Source of the DNA: Nakamurella leprariae
Lineage (GTDB): Bacteria; Actinomycetota; Actinomycetes; Mycobacteriales; Nakamurellaceae
DNA length: 64,000 nt
Assembly: GCF_016918035.1 (NCBI RefSeq)
Contig: NZ_JAERWK010000019.1
Span: forward strand, 1-64,000
Direction of reading: 5' to 3'
In this document: positions 34,416 through 44,976 of the stretch, piece by piece
How the letters are laid out: every line of letters begins with the position of its first letter
How positions within the stretch are numbered: the stretch's first letter is position 1
Notes under the pieces: model-generated
Told to the model about the DNA's origin: nothing
What the model saw: the letters and a program-made list of their open reading frames with translations, nothing else
Database searches by the model: none
Position numbers and translations under genes: made by a program

Positions 34416-35339
34416 ATGACCGACCGGCACCTGGCCAGGATCGCCGCGCTGTTGCGCAAGGCGGAGGGCACCGACAACGCGCACGAGGCCGACGCGTACC
34501 TGCAGGCCGCGCAGCGGCTGGCCACGCTGGCCTCCGTCGACCTGGCCGTGGCCCGCGCCCACACCGACGCCCGCGAGCGACGGGAGGCCCCCACCCAGCG
34601 GGTGGTCACCATCGGCACCTCCGGCAAGCGCGGCCTGCGCACCTACGCGCACCTGTTCCTGGCCATCGCCGGAGCCAACAACCTGACCTGCGACATCGCC
34701 CGCGATTCCAGTGTCATCTACGCCTACGGCTTCGAGGGCGACATCGACACGGTCGAGGCCATGTACGCCTCGCTGGTGGTGCAGATGGTGCGGGCGTGCG
34801 ACGCCTACCTGGCGTCCCCGGAGCACGCGGCCGACTCGACCCTCCGGCAGATCCTGGTCCCCGGCAGCACCCGCCGGGACCGCTGGGGCCGGGTGGTGCA
34901 GGACGTGCAGGTCCAGCGCCGGCCGGTGCACGCGACGACGGCCCGGATCAACTTCCAGCAGGCCTTCGCGGCGCGGATCGGCGCTCGTCTCGCCGAGGCA
35001 CGGCAGCAGGCCGAGCAGCAGGCCCGGGAGGACGAACACCGGACCGCGGCCCGGTCCACCGGGCCGGATCCGATCGGCGTGACGACCGGCCCGACCGGCG
35101 CCGGCGATCCGGCCGAGCCGGCCTCCGGTGTCGCACTGGCGCTGCGGGCCCGTGAGCTGGAGCTGGCCGAGCACTACCGCGCGCACTCGACGGCGCGAGG
35201 CAGCTGGACCGGTGCCCGAGCCACCGCGGGCGCCTCCGAGCGGTCCCGCCGGGCGGGCGACCGGGCCGGTCGGCGCGCCCGCCTGGGCGGTGAGCGAGCC
35301 ATCGGTGGCAGCCGGCCGGGGCTGGACGCCGGGGAATGA
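34416..35339 (+). CDS. DUF2786 domain protein
   Basis: This is a 307-residue cytoplasmic protein. The N-terminal 45 residues match DUF2786 (RIAALLRKAEGTDNAHEADA, YLQAAQRLATLASVDLAVAR). The middle part (GLRTYAHLFLAIAGANNLTC, YGFEGDIDTVEAMYASLVVQ) is a domain usually found with it, and the C-terminal 80 residues are Arg/Ala-rich and disordered. ATG 34416. A single TTGTCCACA DnaA-type word lies at 34337 upstream. The stop overlaps the next gene by ATGA, so they are coupled. Function unknown; the pairing with a TIGR04338-type protein is common in actinobacteria. Confidence 0.87.
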   Translation: MTDRHLARIAALLRKAEGTDNAHEADAYLQAAQRLATLASVDLAVARAHTDARERREAPTQRVVTIGTSGKRGLRTYAHLFLAIAGANNLTCDIARDSSVIYAYGFEGDIDTVEAMYASLVVQMVRACDAYLASPEHAADSTLRQILVPGSTRRDRWGRVVQDVQVQRRPVHATTARINFQQAFAARIGARLAEARQQAEQQAREDEHRTAARSTGPDPIGVTTGPTGAGDPAEPASGVALALRARELELAEHYRAHSTARGSWTGARATAGASERSRRAGDRAGRRARLGGERAIGGSRPGLDAGE

Positions 35340-35914
35340 CGCCCTCCGGCCGGGCGACCGGACGCCGCCGGGACGGCCCCGAGCGGGACGGCCCCGAGCG
35401 GGACGGCCAGCGTTCCCTGGTCTACGACGCCGAGCAGCTGGTCCGCGGGGCGTTCGACCGTGCGGTCGACGGCCGGTCCGCGGCCACGGTGCAGGTGGCC
35501 GGGTCCACCGTCACGCTGCCGGTGGAGCGCCGTTTCGCGTCGGTCGAGTCCGTGCAGGCCTACCTGGCCGCCGTGACGGCGCTGCCCTGGATCCGGGCGC
35601 GGTGGCCCCGCGCCGTCGAACCGGTCACCGTCCGGGCCCGGGCCGGCGCCGGCCGGGCCCACTACGAGCGGGCCGGTGCGGTCCTCGCGGTACCGGTGGG
35701 TCGCGACGCCGACGGTCGGCCGTGGGCGCTGCGGGAACTGGTCGTGTTGCACGAGCTGGCCCACCACCTGGCGGCGGACGACCAGCTCCGGCTGGCCCCG
35801 CACGGGCCGGCGTTCGTCGGACGGTTCCTCGACCTGGTCGACGGCGTGATCGGTCCGGAGGCCGCGTTCCTGCTCCGGGTCACCCTGCTGCAGCTGGGTG
35901 CCCAGGTCGGGTGA
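35336..35914 (+). CDS. TIGR04338 family putative metallohydrolase
   Basis: This is a 192-residue protein with a zincin-like motif HELAHHLAADDQ (about residues 139-150), preceded by WALRELVVL, and HGPAFVGRFLDLVDGVIG downstream as the third ligand region. The conserved start SLVYDAEQLVRGAFDRA matches TIGR04338. The first 27 residues are coded by a short tandem repeat (see findings) that gives RDGPERDGPERDGQ. ATG 35336 overlaps the DUF2786 stop. It is probably a zinc peptidase-like enzyme of unknown substrate. Confidence 0.85.
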   Translation: MTPSGRATGRRRDGPERDGPERDGQRSLVYDAEQLVRGAFDRAVDGRSAATVQVAGSTVTLPVERRFASVESVQAYLAAVTALPWIRARWPRAVEPVTVRARAGAGRAHYERAGAVLAVPVGRDADGRPWALRELVVLHELAHHLAADDQLRLAPHGPAFVGRFLDLVDGVIGPEAAFLLRVTLLQLGAQVG

Positions 35915-36806: not shown

Positions 36807-37889
36807 TCAGACCACCTGTTCCCGCAGACCCAGCCACGGGTCCAGTCCGTCGTCGACGTCGGACCACGCCCGCGGATGGGCGGCCAGCTCGTCGTCGGTG
36901 AGCAGAGCTCGCTCGAACGCCGCGGTGATCCTCGGCCGCTCGCCCTGCACGCCGGTGAAGGACAGCTGGGTGCGGGCGGGGGCACCGTCCCAGCCGCCGA
37001 GCCCGCGGACCAGCAGCTGGCCGCCGGCGGCGTCCCACGCGCAGGACTGCTCGGGCCGGGTGGGCAGCGCGAAGCAGCCGCGGCTGCGGACCGGGGCGTC
37101 GTGCAGGCTCTCGGCGATGAGCCGCCACCGCTGCGGGTGCAGGGGTCGCCGCGAGCGCAGCGTGATGGTCCAGATGCCGCCGTCCTGGGTGGGCGCTCCG
37201 GCCGGCAGCTCGCGCAGGTCGGCGCGCCGGGCGGCGGTACCCGGCCGGCGGTGCCGGCGCAGCAGGGACTCGGGACCGGCGTGCAGCAGGTCGGCGCGCT
37301 CGCTGTCGGCTGCCCGGAGTTGGTCGACCAGGGCACGGCCGGTGGGGCTGCCCCCGCTGGTCAGCACCAGGTCGGCCGGGGTCAGCTGGGCGGACAGCGC
37401 ATGCGACACGGACCGGGCGTCGGTGGGGCACAGCTGCCGGTCGTGGTCGGCCATCAGCGCGGTGCCCAGCAGGTCGGCCACCGCCCGGTCGAGGTCGACC
37501 AGGCTGACCACCGCGGCCAGGTGCACACCGAGCTCGGCGGCCAGCGACGCGGTGTCCAGCTGCCCGGCGAGTCCCAGCGGCGCCGCCCCGACCGGGAGCT
37601 GCACGACCACGGCGGTCGGCGGGCCCGAGCGACGGTGCCGGACCAGCGTGGCGAGGTCGTGCACGGTGTGGGAGGTGGTGGCGCACCCGGCGCAGCCGTC
37701 GGACAGATCGATCCGCTGGTCCTCCTGGACGCCGCCGAGGTCGCCGAGCACGCGGCGGAGCCGGCCGGAGCGGGCGTCGACCTCGTGCCGCAGCAGGACG
37801 GCACCGGGCAGATCGACGAGCAGGGCACCGCCGGCGACCTCCAACAGCACGGGGTCGATGCCGGACAACACCACGACGGGGACGGTCAC
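36807..37889 (-). CDS. CobW/COG0523-like protein without a P-loop
   Basis: This is a 360-residue protein related to the COG0523 family of metallochaperone GTPases. It keeps the N-terminal strand VPVVVLSGIDPVLLEVAGGA, the metal-binding-like SDGCAGCATTSHTVHDL (CxxC), VSLVDLDRA and the C-terminal CobW_C-like GIWTITLRSRRPLHPQRWR. The Walker A GxxGxGKT that should follow the first strand is absent, so it probably does not hydrolyse GTP in the normal way. Such P-loop-less forms are known in actinobacterial zinc/iron-response gene sets. GTG 37889. An IdeR/DtxR-like box lies just upstream, which suggests metal control. Confidence 0.75.
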   Translation of the reverse strand: MTVPVVVLSGIDPVLLEVAGGALLVDLPGAVLLRHEVDARSGRLRRVLGDLGGVQEDQRIDLSDGCAGCATTSHTVHDLATLVRHRRSGPPTAVVVQLPVGAAPLGLAGQLDTASLAAELGVHLAAVVSLVDLDRAVADLLGTALMADHDRQLCPTDARSVSHALSAQLTPADLVLTSGGSPTGRALVDQLRAADSERADLLHAGPESLLRRHRRPGTAARRADLRELPAGAPTQDGGIWTITLRSRRPLHPQRWRLIAESLHDAPVRSRGCFALPTRPEQSCAWDAAGGQLLVRGLGGWDGAPARTQLSFTGVQGERPRITAAFERALLTDDELAAHPRAWSDVDDGLDPWLGLREQVV

Positions 37890-37931: not shown

Positions 37932-38189
37932 CTGACCCCGATCTGTCTCCCCCCGGTCAGCGTGAGATGGCGCTCGTTCACCCGCCGGACACCGGAGACA
38001 TCCGGCGGTTGCCGGCGGCGACCACCCGGTTCCCGGACGGGTGATCGGTGCCCGCCCGGCGTCCACCCCGGCGGCGTCCAGCCGGCCCTTCACCACACCG
38101 GGTGACCCTCGTAACCTCGAAATGTCACCGACACACGACGTGGTTAGCGTGAGCGCCACTCGGCCCGACGAAGATCAACGGGAGGCCCG

Positions 38190-39983
38190 ATGTGCGGCCT
38201 GTGCGGCGAAGTCCGCTTCGACGGTGCGGCACCGGATCTCGCCGCCGTCGACCGGATGTCCTGCCGGATGGAGCCGCGCGGGCCCAACGGTCAGGGCGTC
38301 TGGCAGAGCGGTCCGGTGGCCCTGGCCCACCGGCGGCTGGCCATCATCGACCTGTCCGCGGCCGGCGCGCAGCCGATGGTGGAGAGCGCGCTGGGGTTGT
38401 CGGTCGTCTTCAACGGCTGCATCTACAACTACCGGGAACTGCGCGACGAGCTCCGCGCGGCCGGCTACGAGTTCTTCTCCATGTCCGACACCGAGGTGGT
38501 GGCCAAGGCGTACCACCGCTGGGGCACCGACTGCGTCCGGCACTTCAAGGGCATGTTCGCCTTCGCGGTGTCGGAACGGGCCACCGGCCGGCTGGTGCTG
38601 GCCCGTGATCGCCTCGGCATCAAGCCGCTCTACCTGAGCCATCGCGGGGACCGGCTGCGGTTCGCCTCCAGCCTGCCCGCGCTGCTCGCCGCCGGTGACG
38701 TCGACACCTCGATCGACCCGGTGGCCCTGCACCACTACATGACCTTCCATGCGGTGGTCCCCCCACCGCGGACCATCCTGACCGGGGTGCGCAAGCTCCC
38801 GCCGGCCACGGTCCGCGTCTACGAGCCGGACGGCCGGTCCACCGACACGGTCTACTGGTCGCCGTCGCACGACCGCCGGGCCGAGGACGCCGGGCTGACC
38901 CAGCAGGACTGGCAGGACCGGGTGCTCGACGGGCTGCGCACCGCGGTGCGCCGGCGCATGGTCGCCGACGTGCCGGTCGGCGTGCTGCTGTCCGGCGGCA
39001 TCGACTCCAGCGTCATCGTCGCGCTGCTGGCCGAGCAGGGCCAGCACGGGCTGCAGACGTTCAGCATCGGCTTCGAGCGGGTGGGTGACCGGGAGGGCGA
39101 CGAGTTCGTCTTCTCCGACCTGGTCGCCCGGGAGTTCGACACCGACCACCACCGGATCATGGTCCCGACCGCCGACCTGTTCACCGAGGTGGACGGGATG
39201 CTCGACGCGATGAGCGAGCCGATGGTCAGTCACGACTGCATCGCCTTCTACCTGTTGTCCAAGTACGTCTCGCGGTCGGTGAAGGTGGTGCAGTCCGGGC
39301 AGGGCGCGGACGAGATCCTGGCCGGCTACGACTGGTACCCGCCGCTGGCCGCCGTCGTGGACGACGACCTGGACGGGGCGCTGAGCACCTACTCGGGCCG
39401 GTTCTTCGATCGCACCCACGCCGAGCTCGCGCAGATCCTGATGCCGCCCTGGCTGGCCCCGGACGATCCGAGCCGCGCGCTGGCCGCCGCACACTTCGCC
39501 CGCCCGGGCGCGGGTGGCGCCCTGGACCGGGCGCTGCGGTTGGACTCGCAGGTGATGCTGGTCGACGACCCCGTCAAGCGTGTCGACACCATGACCATGG
39601 CCTGGGGTCTGGAGGCCCGGGTCCCGTTCCTGGACCACGAGTTCGTCGAACTGGCGGCGGCGGTGCCGCCGGCTCTGAAGCTGGCGCAGCAGGGCAAGGG
39701 CGTGCTCAAGGAGGCGTCGCGCTCGGTGTTGCCCGCCGAGGTCATCGACCGGCCCAAGGGGCACTTCCCGGTGCCGGCGATCATCAACCTGCAGGGTCCG
39801 TACCTGGACCGGGTGGTGGACGCGTTGCACGCGCCGGAGGCCAAGCAGCGCGGGCTGTTCCGCCCGCAGTACGTCCAGCACCTGCTCACCGACCCCAACC
39901 GGTTCCGGACCAACCTCGGGTCCAACCAGCTCTGGCAGATCGGTCTGCTCGAGATGTGGCTGCAGCACCACGGGGTGGGCTGA
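38190..39983 (+). CDS. asparagine-synthetase-type amidotransferase (N-acetylglutaminylglutamine amidotransferase-like)
   Basis: This is a 597-residue class II glutamine amidotransferase fused to an AsnB synthetase domain. Cys2 (after Met, in MCGLCGE) is the glutaminase nucleophile; RLAIIDLS, FNGCIYNYRELR and DTEVVAKAYHRWG complete that domain. The ATP-pyrophosphatase domain has VLLSGGIDSS at about residues 265-274 and SGQGADEILAGYDWYPPLA. Length and the MCGLCGE...RMEPRGPNGQG start match the group that amidates N-acetylglutaminylglutamine, an osmolyte. The usual partner, a GNAT/ATP-grasp synthetase, is not next to it; instead the next three genes are an S9 peptidase, a GCS2 ligase and a circularly permuted ATP-grasp. 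ATG 38190 has GGGAGG upstream. Confidence 0.88.
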   Translation: MCGLCGEVRFDGAAPDLAAVDRMSCRMEPRGPNGQGVWQSGPVALAHRRLAIIDLSAAGAQPMVESALGLSVVFNGCIYNYRELRDELRAAGYEFFSMSDTEVVAKAYHRWGTDCVRHFKGMFAFAVSERATGRLVLARDRLGIKPLYLSHRGDRLRFASSLPALLAAGDVDTSIDPVALHHYMTFHAVVPPPRTILTGVRKLPPATVRVYEPDGRSTDTVYWSPSHDRRAEDAGLTQQDWQDRVLDGLRTAVRRRMVADVPVGVLLSGGIDSSVIVALLAEQGQHGLQTFSIGFERVGDREGDEFVFSDLVAREFDTDHHRIMVPTADLFTEVDGMLDAMSEPMVSHDCIAFYLLSKYVSRSVKVVQSGQGADEILAGYDWYPPLAAVVDDDLDGALSTYSGRFFDRTHAELAQILMPPWLAPDDPSRALAAAHFARPGAGGALDRALRLDSQVMLVDDPVKRVDTMTMAWGLEARVPFLDHEFVELAAAVPPALKLAQQGKGVLKEASRSVLPAEVIDRPKGHFPVPAIINLQGPYLDRVVDALHAPEAKQRGLFRPQYVQHLLTDPNRFRTNLGSNQLWQIGLLEMWLQHHGVG

Positions 39984-40136
39984 GCCGTGGTCGCACCCGA
40001 ACAGCACCCCGGCCACCGCGACCCGGACCGCGCGGTGCCCGGCCGGCCCTGGCTCCCACCGCAACCGAGTCGTTCCCGGGCACGGTGGTTGGGCGTCGCC
40101 GGGATCGGGGAGGATCTGGGGCGTGAGGATCGGTTC

Positions 40137-42296
40137 GTGAGGGGTCACGTCGGCACCACTGTCATCGGGCCGTCGACGGCGGACCTGATCCGGACGATCG
40201 CCGCGGTGCCCGGGGCGTGGTGCCCGTCGCTGTCGCCGGACGGGCGGTCGGTCGCGTACATCACCGACCGCAGCGGCACCCCCCGGGTCGAGATCGCGGC
40301 GCTGGAGGATGATCTCGACCCGGAGCCGACGGACGACCCGACCTCGGTCGCTCCTGGTGTCGGGGTCTCGCTGCCCCGGCCGCTGACCACCGTGCTGGAC
40401 CAGGAGGCGATCTCGGTCGCCTGGTCGCCGGGCGGGCAGTGGTTGACCTACCTGGTGTCGCCGGCCGGGTCGATCCGGGCCGAGCTGCACGTGATGCGGC
40501 CGGACGGCTCGGAGCGTCGGTTGCTGGCCGGCGGTGGCCCGACCGAGACCGTGTTCGCCGGTGGGTGGGTCGGTGCCGACCGGTACGCGTTCTCGCTGGC
40601 CGACGGGGTGTCGCCGCACGCCGCCGTGTGTCTGGTCGACGTCGTCACCGGGGTGGTGCACACGGTGCCGGCCACCCACGACCGCGGCTTCTTCGTGGTG
40701 ACCTCGGTCAGCCCCGACGGCCGCCGGGTCCTGGCCCGGCGCGGTCCGCGGGGGCGCCGGCACCTGGTGCTGGCGCCCACCGGACTGGCCGGCGCGGCGG
40801 CGCCGCTCACCGAGCCGGATCCCTCCGCCGGCACCAGCCTGGTCCGGGTGCTGGGGGCCGACTTCGCGGAGGGGGCCGACCTCGGGGAGGACGGCCGCTT
40901 CGCCCTGGACGGGCGGACGATCTTCCTGCGCACCAACGCCGGCCGGGAACGCCTGGTGCTGGCCTCCGTCGAGCTGGACGACGACGGGACACCCGGTCCG
41001 ATGCGCGTCCGCGCGGCCCGCGACGACGCCGACCTGGAGGCGTACGCGGTCTTCGCCGACGGTGCGGTGGCCATGCTGGTCTGGAACGCCGGTGGTGTCA
41101 GCGAGGTGGAGACCCGGGAACTGGACGATGATCTCGGGAGAGATGGTCTCGGGGCGGGCCGACGGTCCGCGATGGTGGCGTTGCCGCAGCCGGTGCTGCC
41201 GGGCTGGTCGCTGCAGGGCGACGGGCGTTCGCTGGTGGTGGAACTCACCGGTCCGCGGTCACCGCGGTCGCTGTACCGGGTCGAATTGCAGGATGCGGTC
41301 GGTCCGTTGGAGGCCGCGTCCGGGGTGGACGGCGGGGCGGTGTTCACCGCCGGTGGGGTGAGCGCCGGGTCCGGTCGGGACGGGTCCAGCGCGGTGCTCG
41401 CCGGGTCGGACGCCCGCCCGGGACCGCTGCGCAGCCATCCCGCGCTGACCGATCGGGCGCCCGCGCCGTCCACCGCCCGGATCCGCCGCCTGCCGTCCAT
41501 GCCGCCCGTCGACGCACTGCCCGACCTGGTGGTGCCCACGCTGGAGCGCTACCGTGCCCCGGACGGCACTCCGCTGGAGGGCTGGCTGTACCGGCCGCGG
41601 TCGGCGCACGGCCCCGAGGCCACGGTCATCTCGCTGCACGGCGGCCCGGAGAGTCAGGAGCGGCCGGCGTACGGGCTGCTGTGCCAGTCGATGGTGGCCG
41701 CCGGGCTGACCGTCTTCGCCCCGAACGTGCGGGGTTCCACCGGCTACGGCCGGTCGTTCATGGAGTCCGACGACGGGGCGGCCCGGGAGACCTCGTTCCA
41801 GGACGTGCTGGCCACCGTCGAGCACCTGGTCGACGCCGGGCTGACCCGGCCCGAGGCGGTCGGCGTGTACGGCTGGTCGTACGGCGGCTACCTCGCGCTG
41901 ACCGCGCTGACCCGCTGGCCGGAGAAGTTCGCCGCCGGCGCCGCGCACGCCGGGATGTCCGACCTGGCCGGCTTCTACGCCGAGACCGAACCGTGGATGG
42001 CGGCCGCGTCGGTCCCCGAGTACGGCGACCCGGAGTCCGACGCCGAACTGCTGCGCCGACTGTCGCCGCTGACGCACATCTCGCGCGTGCAGGTGCCGGT
42101 GCTGCTGGTGCACGGGGACGCCGACACCAACGTCCCGGTCGGGGAGTCGGTGCGGGCGCACCAGGCGCTCAGGGCCAACGGCGTGCCGGCCGAGCTGCTG
42201 TTGCTGCGCGGCGAGGGGCACACCATCGTGGAGGCGTCCCGGCGCGCCGACCTCGCGGTCGCCGTGTCGACCTGGTTCACCCGGTGGCTGCCGTGA
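40137..42296 (+). CDS. S9 family prolyl oligopeptidase/acylaminoacyl peptidase
   Basis: This is about 719 residues: an N-terminal beta-propeller (SPDGRSVAYITDRSGTPRVE, VAWSPGGQWLTYLVS, SVSPDGRRVLARRGPRG) and a C-terminal alpha/beta hydrolase (EGWLYRPRSAHGPEATVISL, HGGPESQERP, GVYGWSYGGYLALTAL with nucleophile Ser581, HGDADTNVP with catalytic Asp and GEGHTI with His). No signal peptide, so it acts in the cytoplasm. GTG 40137 with GAGGA eight bases upstream is chosen; GTG 39987, four bases after the previous stop, would add 50 residues. It overlaps the next gene by GTGA. Its likely role is trimming or releasing a small peptide made by the flanking ligases. Confidence 0.87.
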   Translation: MRGHVGTTVIGPSTADLIRTIAAVPGAWCPSLSPDGRSVAYITDRSGTPRVEIAALEDDLDPEPTDDPTSVAPGVGVSLPRPLTTVLDQEAISVAWSPGGQWLTYLVSPAGSIRAELHVMRPDGSERRLLAGGGPTETVFAGGWVGADRYAFSLADGVSPHAAVCLVDVVTGVVHTVPATHDRGFFVVTSVSPDGRRVLARRGPRGRRHLVLAPTGLAGAAAPLTEPDPSAGTSLVRVLGADFAEGADLGEDGRFALDGRTIFLRTNAGRERLVLASVELDDDGTPGPMRVRAARDDADLEAYAVFADGAVAMLVWNAGGVSEVETRELDDDLGRDGLGAGRRSAMVALPQPVLPGWSLQGDGRSLVVELTGPRSPRSLYRVELQDAVGPLEAASGVDGGAVFTAGGVSAGSGRDGSSAVLAGSDARPGPLRSHPALTDRAPAPSTARIRRLPSMPPVDALPDLVVPTLERYRAPDGTPLEGWLYRPRSAHGPEATVISLHGGPESQERPAYGLLCQSMVAAGLTVFAPNVRGSTGYGRSFMESDDGAARETSFQDVLATVEHLVDAGLTRPEAVGVYGWSYGGYLALTALTRWPEKFAAGAAHAGMSDLAGFYAETEPWMAAASVPEYGDPESDAELLRRLSPLTHISRVQVPVLLVHGDADTNVPVGESVRAHQALRANGVPAELLLLRGEGHTIVEASRRADLAVAVSTWFTRWLP

Positions 42297-43441
42297 GCGG
42301 TTCGGTGCGGATCGGGGTCGAGGAGGAGTTCCACCTCGTCGACCCGGCGACCGGCGTGCTCAGCCCCGGGTCGACCGGGGTGCTGGCCGGGTTGCCCACC
42401 GGCGCCAGGTTCAAGCCCGAACTGATGGCGTCGGCGGTCGAGACCAATTCCGGGGTCTGCGGGACCCTGGACGGGCTGCGGGCCGACGTGATCGCGTCCC
42501 GCCGGGCGGTGGTCGAGGCGGCCGACGCGATCGGACTCGGGGTGATCGGCACCGGCGCGGCGCCGCTGTGGTCGCCGGAGGGCATCCCGGTGGTGCACAC
42601 CGAGCGGTACGAGGAGATGCGCGAGGACTACCGCAAACTGGCCGAGGAGCAGTTCATCTGCGGGTTGCAGGTGCACATTGACTGCCCCGACCGGGATCTC
42701 GGTGTCCGGGTGATGGTGCGGCTGCAGCCCTGGCTGCCCATCCTGCTGGCCCTGTCGGCCAGCTCGCCGTACTGGCAGGGCCGGGACACCGGCTACGCCA
42801 GTTACCGCACGATCGCCTGGCGGCGCTGGCCGACGGCCGGTCCGGTGCCCTGCGTCCGTTCGGCCGCCGAGTACGACGCCCTGGTCGACGCGCTGGTCGC
42901 GTCCGGCGTCGCCCACGACGACAAGATGATCTACTTCGACGCCCGCCCGGCGCTCGCCGCGCCGACGCTGGAGATCCGCATCTGCGACTCGGTCCCGCTG
43001 GTCGACGACGTCGTGCTGCTCGCCGGGCTGGCCCGGGCGCTGGTCTGCCGGGCCGTGGCGCGGGAGACGGCCGAGCCGGGCGGCGTCCTCCCGGTGCCGG
43101 TCGAGCTGCTGGAGGCGGCGCGGTGGCGGGCGGCCCGCTCCGGGCTGACCGGTGTGCTCCTGGACCCCCGCACCTTCCGACCCGTCCTCGCGGCCGAGGC
43201 GGTCGGCCTGCTGCTGGCCGAGGTCCGCGACGACGCGGAGCGGACCGGTGACGCCGCCGAGTTGGCCGAGCTGTGCGCGGCGTCGCTGGCCGACGGGGGC
43301 AGCGCCGCCCGGCAGCGGCGGGCGGTGGCCCGATCGGAGCACAGCACCAGGAGTGTCCGGGCGGCCGTCGATCTGCTGCGGGCGGAGACGCGGGCCACCG
43401 GCCGGGCCGGTCTCGGGGCGGGAACAGGAGCGATGGCGTGA
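42293..43441 (+). CDS. GCS2-family carboxylate-amine ligase (YbdK-like)
   Basis: This is a 382-residue protein of the glutamate-cysteine ligase type 2 family. It opens with VRIGVEEEFHLVDPATG (the GxEEEFxLVD signature) and has RFKPELMASAVETNSGVC, GTGAAPLWSP, EEQFICGLQVHIDCPD, and APTLEIRICDSVPLVDDVV, which together form the ATP/Mg and substrate site. Such enzymes join a carboxylate, often glutamate, to an amine. GTG 42293 overlaps the S9 stop and its own stop overlaps the next gene, so all are coupled. A true glutathione or mycothiol role is not implied; the substrate is unknown. Confidence 0.9.
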   Translation: MSGSVRIGVEEEFHLVDPATGVLSPGSTGVLAGLPTGARFKPELMASAVETNSGVCGTLDGLRADVIASRRAVVEAADAIGLGVIGTGAAPLWSPEGIPVVHTERYEEMREDYRKLAEEQFICGLQVHIDCPDRDLGVRVMVRLQPWLPILLALSASSPYWQGRDTGYASYRTIAWRRWPTAGPVPCVRSAAEYDALVDALVASGVAHDDKMIYFDARPALAAPTLEIRICDSVPLVDDVVLLAGLARALVCRAVARETAEPGGVLPVPVELLEAARWRAARSGLTGVLLDPRTFRPVLAAEAVGLLLAEVRDDAERTGDAAELAELCAASLADGGSAARQRRAVARSEHSTRSVRAAVDLLRAETRATGRAGLGAGTGAMA

Positions 43442-44976
43442 GCCGTCCGGGAACCAGTGAGGCGAGCGGCAACACCGATCAACAGGGCGGTCTCGCGGCC
43501 GGGTACGGACCGCAGCCGCTGGACGAGGCGGTCGATCCGCTCGGCGCGATCCGGCCGGCCTACCGCCAGGTGCTCGAGGTGCTCGACCGGCTCGGTGCCG
43601 ACGAGCTGGCCGCCCGGCACGACCGGCTGGACGCCGAGCGGCTCGGGCACGGCGTCACCTTCCCGGCGCTCAACGCCACCGGCACCGAGCTGCGGTCCTT
43701 CCCGATGGACCTGGTGCCGCGGATCATCGACGCCGACTCGTGGGCGTTCCTGGCCCGTGGGGCGACCCAGCGGGTCCGGGCGCTGAACGCGTTCCTGACC
43801 GATGTGTACCGGCCGACCGACGAGCCGCCGGCCATCGTGGCGGAGGGCATCGTCCCGGACGCCTGGGTGCGCCGCAGCCCGGGCTACCTGCACGGCGCGC
43901 GCGACATCACCCCGGGGGGCCAGGTGCGGGCCACCGTCACCGGTCTGGATCTGCTCACCGACGAGCGGGGCGACTGGGTGGTGCTGGAGGACAACCTCCG
44001 GGTGCCGTCCGGGCTGGCCTACTCGCGGGCCAATCGGGTCACCGCCGCGGCGGTCCTGCCCGAATTGACCGAGGTCGCCGACCGGATCGGCGTGCAGGGC
44101 CCGGACGAGGTGGGCCGGATGCTGCACCGGGCGCTGCTGGACCAGATGCCGATCGGCTGTCCGCGCACCATGGCGCAGGTGGTGGTGCTCTCCGACGGGC
44201 CGGAGAACTCGGCCTGGTACGAGCACCAGCGGCTGGCCGAGCTGATGGGCGTCCCGGTGATCACCCCGGCCGATCTGGTCCCGGACGAGGGGGGCGGGGT
44301 GGCGGCCATGGTCGACGGCGCGCACCTGCCGATCGACGTCGTCTACCGCCGGCTCGGCGACGACGAGTTGGTGCATGCGGGCCGCAAGCCCACGGCCGGT
44401 GGAGACACCTCGATCGATCCGGTCCGGCGGCGGGCGGCCGACCTGCTCGTCGACGCGGCCCGGGCCGGGCGGGTCTCGATCGCCAACGCCCCGGGCAACG
44501 GGGTGGCCGACGACAAGGCCATCTACGCGTTCGTCGGTCCGATGATCCGGTTCTACCTGGGTGAGGATCCGATCCTGCGGGACGTCGGCACCTGGGTGCT
44601 GGCCGATCCGAACCAGTACGAGGCGGTGCGTGGCCGGATGCACGAGCTGGTGGTCAAGCCGATCGACGGCTCCGGCGGGCAGGGCGTGATGATCGGCCCG
44701 GACCTGTCCGAGGAGCGGGTGGCCCGGCTGGAGGCGGAGGTGGCGGCGGCGCCGCACCGGTACATCGCCCAGGACGTCATCCGGTTCTCCACCCATCCCA
44801 CGCTGATCGGTGGGCACCTGGTGCCCCGGCACGTGGACCTGCGCATGTTCGTGCTCAGCGGCGAGGACACCGTGGTGGCGCCCGTCGCGCTGACCCGGGT
44901 GGCCCTGGAGTCCGAGGGCCTGCTGGTCAACTCCTCGCAGGGCGGCGGTTCGAAGGACACCTGGCTGCTGCGCTGA
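43438..44976 (+). CDS. circularly permuted type 2 ATP-grasp protein
   Basis: This is a 512-residue protein of the circularly permuted ATP-grasp family (DUF404/DUF407/DUF403 type). Motifs include ALNATGTELRSFPMDLVPRI, FLTDVYRPTDEPPAIVAEGI, WVVLEDNLRVPSGLAYSRAN, DGAHLPIDVVYRRLGDDEL, VSIANAPGNGVADDKAIYAF, and ELVVKPIDGSGGQGVMIGP, the ATP-binding loop. It is expected to form an amide bond using ATP. GTG 43438 overlaps the GCS2 stop (GTGA). GCS2 plus this type of ATP-grasp is a recurring pair in bacterial genomes with no settled product. Confidence 0.9.
   Translation: MSRPGTSEASGNTDQQGGLAAGYGPQPLDEAVDPLGAIRPAYRQVLEVLDRLGADELAARHDRLDAERLGHGVTFPALNATGTELRSFPMDLVPRIIDADSWAFLARGATQRVRALNAFLTDVYRPTDEPPAIVAEGIVPDAWVRRSPGYLHGARDITPGGQVRATVTGLDLLTDERGDWVVLEDNLRVPSGLAYSRANRVTAAAVLPELTEVADRIGVQGPDEVGRMLHRALLDQMPIGCPRTMAQVVVLSDGPENSAWYEHQRLAELMGVPVITPADLVPDEGGGVAAMVDGAHLPIDVVYRRLGDDELVHAGRKPTAGGDTSIDPVRRRAADLLVDAARAGRVSIANAPGNGVADDKAIYAFVGPMIRFYLGEDPILRDVGTWVLADPNQYEAVRGRMHELVVKPIDGSGGQGVMIGPDLSEERVARLEAEVAAAPHRYIAQDVIRFSTHPTLIGGHLVPRHVDLRMFVLSGEDTVVAPVALTRVALESEGLLVNSSQGGGSKDTWLLR

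What the first reader, a model, noticed from the sequence alone, without database searches (positions are those of the whole stretch)
38190..44976. Coupled amidoligase cluster: AsnB-type amidotransferase, S9 peptidase, GCS2 ligase, circularly permuted ATP-grasp
Seen: four adjacent plus-strand genes; the last three overlap by GTGA and all have intact active sites. Known: the AsnB type (MCGLCGE, TIGR03104-like) amidates N-acetylglutaminylglutamine when paired with a GNAT/ATP-grasp synthetase; GCS2 and this ATP-grasp type join carboxylates to amines; S9 enzymes cut small peptides. Here the known partner synthetase is missing and a different ligase pair takes its place. Inference: the cluster makes, amidates and recycles a small peptide or pseudopeptide, perhaps an osmolyte or redox buffer, by a route that is not the described one.
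Basis: partly seen in the sequence, partly recalled or inferred. Interest (0 to 1): 0.78.

Follow-up and report, generated by a model that had tools for sequence, protein, structure and literature searches.

The report
Osmolyte amidase with swapped synthetase partners
Many actinobacteria pair an enzyme known from making a small salt-protecting dipeptide with a different set of joining and cutting enzymes from the textbook ones, which points to a second, untested route to that dipeptide or to a close chemical cousin.

Summary
The four genes are real and intact (38190-44976, +). The AsnB scores 949 bits against TIGR03104 (cut-off 570); the genome has no Ngg synthetase (TIGR03103) over cut-off. 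In 394 class genomes, 106 carry TIGR03104: 49 with Ngg, 57 without. I read 94 AsnB neighbourhoods (93 genomes): 36 have Ngg (22 with the NAGGN M42 peptidase); 55 instead have GCS2, circularly permuted ATP-grasp and/or S9 peptidase and no Ngg or M42; 3 have neither kit. Where GCS2 and ATP-grasp both occur they are one fused frame in 34 of 35 loci; the window, split with a GTGA overlap, is the exception. Rooted on Gammaproteobacteria, GCS2-type AsnBs form one clade (98/93) inside Ngg-type AsnBs: synthetase and peptidase were apparently replaced around a conserved NAGGN amidotransferase. R573/G577 marks 55 of 55 GCS2-type AsnBs; L573 with R577 or N577 marks 36 of 36 Ngg-type. Most likely product: N-acetylglutaminylglutamine amide or a close glutamyl/glutaminyl dipeptide amide, joined by GCS2 and/or ATP-grasp, amidated by AsnB, cleaved by S9. 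The chemistry is inferred. Frankia's version is in print as a divergent 'asnO-ngg' cluster; the passages I read do not mention the GCS2-ATP-grasp protein.

The parts
38190..39983 (+). AsnB/AsnO-type glutamine-dependent amidotransferase (TIGR03104), 597 aa; class marker R573/G577
   Evidence: (949 bits, cut-off 570); AlphaFold model mean pLDDT 91.2, best PDB match hydroxyamidotransferase 7ylz, then E. coli AsnB 1ct9
39987..42296 (+). S9 serine peptidase with a beta-propeller-repeat match (PD40); nearest solved relatives are acylaminoacyl peptidases; annotated start may be too early
   Evidence: (model mean pLDDT 74.1)
42293..43441 (+). GCS2 / YbdK-type carboxylate-amine ligase
   Evidence: (TIGR02050 263 vs cut-off 176; NF010041 342 vs 332)
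43438..44976 (+). circularly permuted type 2 ATP-grasp ligase (PF14403); in one frame with GCS2 in 34 of 35 loci that have both
   Evidence: (3n6x, 504 bits)
38180..38185 (+). GGGAGG, likely ribosome-binding site of the AsnB gene
   Evidence: read directly
42293..42296 (+). GTGA stop/start overlap S9-GCS2 (translational coupling inferred)
43438..43441 (+). GTGA stop/start overlap GCS2-ATP-grasp (where relatives have one fused frame)

Best explanation
The cluster is a rebuilt NAGGN-type pathway. An actinobacterial lineage of the NAGGN amidotransferase (AsnO) exchanged its usual partners, the GNAT/ATP-grasp synthetase Ngg and the M42 peptidase, for a GCS2 ligase plus circularly permuted ATP-grasp (usually one fused protein) and an S9 acylaminoacyl-type peptidase. 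Inferred mechanism: GCS2 and/or ATP-grasp activate a glutamate/glutamine carboxylate with ATP and join it to glutamine; the dipeptide is N-acylated (by a neighbouring GNAT in the Frankia-like family, by an unidentified acetyltransferase elsewhere, or not at all); AsnB moves the amide nitrogen of glutamine onto the C-terminal carboxylate; S9 later cuts the dipeptide to release its parts. The product is most likely NAGGN or a close analogue (for example a gamma-linked isomer), used as a compatible solute. Shown by comparison: co-conservation, partner replacement, conserved active sites. Inferred: every chemical step, the product and the role.
For: (1) Own genome lacks Ngg over cut-off (best 28.9 bits vs 569). 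(2) 49 of 106 TIGR03104 genomes have Ngg, 57 do not; ATP-grasp at 588 bits or more (threshold set by me after seeing the scores) is in 38 of those 57 and 0 of the 49. (3) Of 94 AsnB loci, 36 carry Ngg (22 with M42), 55 carry GCS2/ATP-grasp/S9 (44 with S9), none of the 55 has Ngg or M42, 3 have neither kit. (4) GCS2 and ATP-grasp are one open frame in 34 of 35 loci with both. (5) GCS2-type AsnBs are one clade, 98/93, inside Ngg-type AsnBs; Ngg-type monophyly in 0% of 200 bootstrap trees (39 rows). (6) 227 columns are at least 90% the same residue in both classes and 9 separate them (24 vs 16 rows); R573/G577 in 55 of 55, L573 with R577 (34) or N577 (2) in 36 of 36; the two gammaproteobacterial Ngg-type AsnBs have I573/R577, so R577 looks ancestral and R573/G577 derived. 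(7) GCS2 and ATP-grasp distances track AsnB distances (Mantel r 0.93 and 0.94, 0 of 2000 permutations). (8) S9 is closest to acylaminoacyl peptidases by sequence and fold. (9) A GNAT acetyltransferase lies just behind AsnB or S9 in 22 of 55 loci, all in one family. (10) NAGGN was isolated from a Micromonospora with asnO and ngg (PMC8146288 passages), so the parent pathway works in this phylum.
Against: No chemistry is shown. GCS2 enzymes usually use a gamma-carboxyl (established knowledge), so the linkage may differ from NAGGN's. No ligase is universal: 14 loci are GCS2-AsnB-S9 without ATP-grasp, 4 are AsnB-S9 only, and two Modestobacter MAG loci are AsnB-S9-ATP-grasp without GCS2 beside them. 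High-scoring ATP-grasp occurs without TIGR03104 in 6 of 44 genomes, in all six next to GCS2 and in four with S9; a further GCS2-ATP-grasp pair without AsnB or S9 (G311, L204) scores 571 bits, just under my threshold. No acetyltransferase is among the flanking window proteins scanned and no Frankia-type GNAT hit was seen outside family f21. 2 of the 13 cluster-bearing named genomes searched also hold Ngg. The class markers could be mere shared ancestry. The window AsnB sits on a long branch, and a tree with a very distant outgroup nested the classes the other way.
Confidence: 0.55

Rival explanations
1. Same architecture but a different end product: a gamma-glutamyl pseudopeptide amide (specialised metabolite, storage or redox compound) that is not an osmolyte; the AsnB was retuned (R573/G577) when the partners changed.
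For: GCS2 passes the NCBI glutamate--cysteine ligase subfamily cut-off; 9 class-separating AsnB columns, among them an arginine at 573 in one class and at 577 in the other; variable ligase content between lineages; an Orn/Lys/Arg decarboxylase follows S9 in L075.
Against: AsnB is about 65% identical between the classes and 68-71% within them, with 227 columns the same in both; nested origin from Ngg-type AsnBs.
Confidence: 0.27
2. The AsnB is an ordinary asparagine synthetase and the neighbours are unrelated housekeeping genes.
For: TIGR03104 is not specific: 63 of 143 gammaproteobacterial genomes exceed its cut-off and 18 of 20 loci read gave no Ngg hit.
Against: All 7 such sequences used fall outside the clade of Ngg- and GCS2-type AsnBs (100/100), 17 of 18 do (L240, on a long branch, falls inside). 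Gene content and order recur across many families; the genome has another AsnB-like ORF (C27:274183, 251 bits).
Confidence: 0.08
3. A variant of the Anbu / Alpha-E / transglutaminase / ATP-grasp system, proposed to make and cut peptides.
For: The same circularly permuted ATP-grasp superfamily (recalled for the Anbu operon's enzyme); lower-scoring copies (listed rows at or below 572 bits) are widespread in the class.
Against: No Alpha-E, transglutaminase or Anbu family among the 10 window proteins scanned; the peptidase here is S9 and an amidotransferase is present.
Confidence: 0.06

Closest known systems
NAGGN osmoprotectant system (asnO-ngg-M42; TIGR03104/TIGR03103/TIGR03106), described for S. 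meliloti and P. aeruginosa PA3459-PA3461
   Same: Amidotransferase of the same lineage; each kit has ATP-dependent amide ligase(s), the amidotransferase and a peptidase in one neighbourhood
   Different: Ngg replaced by GCS2 and circularly permuted ATP-grasp; M42 replaced by S9; GNAT separate (one family only) or not found; different AsnB marker residues
Casuarina Frankia 'asnO-ngg' cluster (Oshone et al. 2017, PMC5563000; passages read)
   Same: asnO over 60% identical to others, and a dipeptidase between asnO and a putative 'ngg' under 15% identical; this fits the AsnB-S9-GNAT order of locus L103
   Different: The passages treat it as the ordinary pathway; the terms ATP-grasp and glutamate-cysteine have 0 occurrences in the main text
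Anbu / Alpha-E / transglutaminase / ATP-grasp operon (PMC5666114 passages; Iyer et al. 2009 not held)
   Different: No Anbu, Alpha-E or transglutaminase found; an AsnB amidotransferase is present
YbdK / glutamate-cysteine ligase family 2
   Same: GCS2 domain and conserved catalytic residues
   Different: Fused or coupled to ATP-grasp and linked to AsnB; a higher-scoring subgroup (534-636 bits versus at most 374 for the other copies in the 24 genomes)

Membership tests
NAGGN system (asnO-ngg-M42) | AsnO amidotransferase (TIGR03104) over cut-off | tested here: met
   949 vs 570.1 bits; but the cut-off is not specific
NAGGN system (asnO-ngg-M42) | Ngg GNAT/ATP-grasp synthetase (TIGR03103) | tested here: not met
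   best match in own genome 28.9 bits vs cut-off 569
NAGGN system (asnO-ngg-M42) | M42 peptidase (TIGR03106) in the neighbourhood | tested here: not met
   none near the window AsnB; S9 instead; the whole genome was not searched for TIGR03106
NAGGN system (asnO-ngg-M42) | Produces NAGGN under osmotic stress | not testable with these tools
   needs analysis of cell extracts
Ngg-type AsnO lineage | AsnB falls within the clade of Ngg-type AsnBs | tested here: met
   GCS2-type clade nested in Ngg-type, 98/93 (one search agrees; with a very distant outgroup does not)
Ngg-type AsnO lineage | Marker R577 (or N577) with L/I573 | tested here: not met
   window has R573/G577
GCS2 / YbdK carboxylate-amine ligase | GCS2 domain with catalytic residues | tested here: met
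Circularly permuted type 2 ATP-grasp | PF14403 with conserved ATP-binding residues | tested here: met
   373.8 bits; 3n6x
Acylaminoacyl peptidase (S9) | S9 triad and nearest solved homologue an acylaminoacyl peptidase | tested here: met
   other S9 enzymes score close behind; substrate specificity not tested
Anbu/Alpha-E peptide system | Anbu, Alpha-E or transglutaminase in the operon | tested here: not met
   absent among the 10 window proteins scanned

The most novel reading that the evidence does not exclude
A second, separately assembled biosynthetic route to an amidated glutamine-type dipeptide exists in Actinomycetota. A GCS2-ATP-grasp fusion displaced the GNAT/ATP-grasp synthetase Ngg (and S9 displaced M42) around a conserved amidotransferase, giving either convergent synthesis of NAGGN or a new gamma-linked dipeptide amide solute.
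Probability: 0.6. Interest if true: 0.75.

Novelty: new variant of a known kind. Interest (0 to 1): 0.62.

Why it matters
If true, genome annotation names the wrong pathway: NCBIfam calls these AsnBs NAGGN amidotransferases although no NAGGN synthetase accompanies them, and the Frankia paper assigns them an 'ngg' of under 15% identity. It gives a concrete test case for replacement of a peptide synthetase around a fixed tailoring enzyme, offers a possible function for a GCS2-ATP-grasp fusion, and supplies a two-residue marker that tells the two AsnB classes apart in the actinobacterial loci read.

Tried and rejected
I considered Frankia alni PEG-induced proteins FRAAL1888 and FRAAL2171 (PMC5768760 passages) as evidence of osmotic induction, but could not tie those tags to this locus and did not use them. 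No Frankia-type GNAT was found in the window. Fisher tests are not used as probabilities because the genomes are related.

Rows and labels. (94 rows, L091 left out for its N stretch) used a very distant outgroup (branch 8.8) and nested Ngg-type inside GCS2-type; I set it aside; 64 rows (44 of 94 actinobacterial AsnBs, all 20 gammaproteobacterial); 39 rows chosen by me for spread (30 actinobacterial, the 2 Ngg-type and 7 of 18 other gammaproteobacterial), leaving out L095, L096, L097, L113 and L240 among others; L096 and L097 sit beside the GCS2 clade and L113 with two Ngg-type rows. In my labels L070 counted as GCS2+S9, but its GCS2 lies 7.6 kb away at 36% and is probably another copy; one search's order table counts it as AsnB-S9. 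The 3 'neither' loci are L096, L097 and L113; L113 is a 5.9 kb contig with M42 and may be cut. The 13 TIGR03104 genomes whose neighbourhoods were not read all have Ngg. In one search near-identical rows and L022, L070, L085 were dropped (30 of 49 and 19 of 35 loci used). The first marker count in gammaproteobacteria used a pattern that misread the site; one search replaces it.

Papers: eight were seen as passages only. Iyer 2009 and Sagot 2010 were not held; what I say of them is second-hand or recalled, and whether this cluster is already in Iyer 2009 I could not check. Paper searches.
Full report
Observation. The window holds four adjacent plus-strand genes as described. Pfam and NCBIfam name them Asn synthase with GATase (TIGR03104, 949 bits, cut-off 570), Peptidase_S9, GCS2/YbdK and CP_ATPgrasp_2. 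AsnB is 3 bases from S9; the last three overlap by GTGA. Catalytic residues are conserved among homologues. The S9 start is doubtful: in 12 of 13 homologues whose alignment reaches the first 90 residues, homology begins at residue 55-85.

Is the known partner missing? Yes in this genome: TIGR03103 finds only fragments of 29 bits or less against a cut-off of 569 (assembly 99% complete, 39 contigs). In 394 genomes of the class, 106 have TIGR03104 over cut-off and 52 have TIGR03103 over cut-off. 49 have both, 57 only the AsnB, 3 only Ngg.

What sits beside AsnB? I read 94 AsnB neighbourhoods from 93 of the 106 genomes; all 13 unread genomes have Ngg; 36 loci have Ngg (22 with an M42 peptidase; one of them also has a 32% S9 hit 6 kb away); 55 have GCS2, ATP-grasp and/or S9 (44 with S9, none with M42 or Ngg; some short contigs end before S9 would be seen); 3 have neither kit. 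One search confirms three M42 examples as TIGR03106. Gene orders in the 55: GCS2-ATPgrasp-AsnB-S9 in 24, GCS2-AsnB-S9 in 14, GCS2-ATPgrasp-AsnB in 10, AsnB-S9 in 4, ATPgrasp-AsnB on a 4.5 kb contig in 1, a short ATP-grasp match before AsnB-S9 in 1 (L085), and the window's own order AsnB-S9-GCS2-ATPgrasp in 1. GCS2 and ATP-grasp are a single open frame in 34 of the 35 loci that have both; L084 shows both Pfam domains in one protein. The window, split with a GTGA overlap, is the one exception.

Named carriers. A scan of named genomes gave 80 ATP-grasp loci (capped list); 14 carry AsnB alongside: Winogradskya humida, Actinoplanes rectilineatus, Actinoplanes sp. NBRC 103695, Micromonospora noduli, Mycobacterium sp. 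1164966.3, Pseudonocardia oroxyli, and eight MAGs (two Modestobacter, Actinoallomurus, two Pseudonocardiales, Mycobacterium, Pseudonocardia, and one labelled Nevskia that may be mis-binned). The two Modestobacter MAG loci share the window's gene order but have no GCS2 there; L116 holds the AsnB closest to the window's that I saw (71%). One genome of the same phylum but outside the class has the full set (G629, L245); in that draw of 198 phylum genomes only it and the window's own genome passed E 1e-175.

Direction of change. With gammaproteobacterial sequences as outgroup, a careful tree of 39 AsnBs puts the two gammaproteobacterial Ngg-partnered AsnBs and then the actinobacterial Ngg-partnered AsnBs as successive branches, and all 19 GCS2-type AsnBs in one clade (98/93). 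Ngg-type monophyly occurs in 0% of 200 bootstrap trees. A 64-row quick tree agrees. An earlier tree rooted on a very distant sequence nested Ngg-type inside GCS2-type and left the window AsnB outside the main GCS2 groups; I set it aside because that outgroup branch was 8.8 changes per column. I read the better-rooted trees as replacement of synthetase and peptidase around a conserved amidotransferase.

How conserved is AsnB across the switch? Mean identity is 68% within GCS2-type, 71% within Ngg-type and 65% between (24 and 16 rows). 227 columns are at least 90% the same residue in both; 9 separate the classes. Two of these lie four residues apart near the C-terminus: R573/G577 in 55 of 55 GCS2-type loci, L573 with R577 (34) or N577 (2) in 36 of 36 Ngg-type loci. 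Of 14 named carriers, 13 could be read at this site and show R/G, as does L245. The two gammaproteobacterial Ngg-type AsnBs read I573/R577 within the same TPLRG motif as the 6 actinobacterial Ngg-type rows in that alignment, whereas the 18 other gammaproteobacterial AsnBs vary; one of those 18 has L/R and none has R/G. So R577 looks ancestral in the Ngg-type and R573/G577 derived. This may mark a change in acceptor or partner contact, or only ancestry.

Do the partners co-evolve? Distance matrices of GCS2 and ATP-grasp track AsnB (Mantel r 0.93 with 30 loci and 0.94 with 19, near-identical rows dropped; 0 of 2000 permutations as high). ATP-grasp at 588 bits or more is in 44 of 394 genomes, 38 with TIGR03104 and none of those 38 with Ngg. 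The next listed score is 572, so the threshold, which I set after seeing the scores, is not a clean gap. The 6 genomes without TIGR03104 all have GCS2 beside ATP-grasp; in four it is followed by S9 (L196-L199), in two there is no AsnB or S9 hit (L200, L201). G311 (L204), just under the threshold at 571 bits, is a further GCS2-ATP-grasp pair without AsnB or S9. G307 and G369 keep the pair on another contig from AsnB-S9 (L202, L203).

The peptidase. S9 is nearest by sequence to acylaminoacyl peptidases (5l8s 3.7e-31, then the 1ve6 group), and the AlphaFold model (mean pLDDT 74) has the acylaminoacyl peptidase 5l8s as best Foldseek match. Such enzymes release N-acylated residues (established knowledge), which suits an N-acylated dipeptide. 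S9 carboxypeptidase and prolyl oligopeptidases score close behind, so this is suggestive only.

The acetyl group. Ngg carries its own GNAT domain. In 22 of the 55 GCS2-type loci, all in family f21, a separate GNAT acetyltransferase (PF00583 in the three scanned) lies behind S9, or behind AsnB directly in six loci without an S9 hit (on the opposite strand in L103). No such hit was found in the window. So acetylation may be done by an unlinked enzyme, or the product may not be acetylated.

Literature. The passages read in Oshone et al. 2017 (PMC5563000) say Casuarina Frankia have an asnO over 60% identical to others and a putative ngg under 15% identical, with a dipeptidase gene between them. 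This fits AsnB-S9-GNAT. The GCS2-ATP-grasp protein is not mentioned in those passages. PMC8070244 (passages) gives the NAGGN pathway; PMC8146288 (passages) reports NAGGN isolated from a Micromonospora with asnO and ngg. Searches aimed at papers linking these ligases with NAGGN found none in the held library (judged from listings and, for PMC2922099 and PMC5666114, passages); Iyer et al. 2009, the likeliest place for an earlier mention, was not held.

Results against the simple reading. TIGR03104 is not proof of NAGGN: 63 of 143 gammaproteobacterial genomes pass its cut-off, and of 20 loci that I picked and read, 18 gave no Ngg hit with a mycobacterial-type query. No ligase is universal in the GCS2 class. 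2 of 13 cluster-bearing named genomes searched also have Ngg (L119's genome was not held): the Modestobacter MAG of L117, and Mycobacterium sp. 1164966.3, where Ngg stands without AsnB in the 17 kb read and the only TIGR03104 AsnB is the cluster's own. That single case would fit a shared substrate but proves nothing.

Verdict. The product is not known. I file it as a new variant of a known kind: it works like a NAGGN-type ligate-amidate-cleave kit but fails the Ngg and M42 membership tests.

Noticed in passing
G400 (Mycobacterium sp. 1164966.3), L246 and L134: Ngg without an AsnB hit in the 17 kb read around it, in a genome whose only TIGR03104 AsnB is in the GCS2-ATP-grasp cluster.
   Followed up: partly
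G329 (L206), G345 (L207), G064 (L208): Ngg (TIGR03103) present but no TIGR03104 match at E 1e-100 in the genome: orphan synthetases.
   Followed up: partly
L196-L199 (family f32): GCS2-ATP-grasp followed by S9 with no AsnB hit in the stretch read: a non-amidating version?
   Followed up: no
Gammaproteobacterial loci such as L228, L234, L238, L243, L244: TIGR03104-scoring AsnB lies next to a small protein that looks by eye like a monothiol glutaredoxin (not scanned), with no Ngg hit; the TIGR03104 cut-off appears too loose there.
   Followed up: partly
L075 (family f22), downstream of S9: Orn/Lys/Arg decarboxylase (PF01276) follows the GCS2-AsnB-S9 genes; a similar-looking ORF follows in L078, by eye only.
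   Followed up: no
window 35336-35914 (+): HEXXH metallohydrolase of family TIGR04338, 208.6 bits, cut-off 90.
   Followed up: no
window 36807-37889 (-): GTPase-like protein with CobW C-terminal domain, divergent from AsnB; match to ribosome-hibernation recruiter MRF below its cut-off.
   Followed up: no
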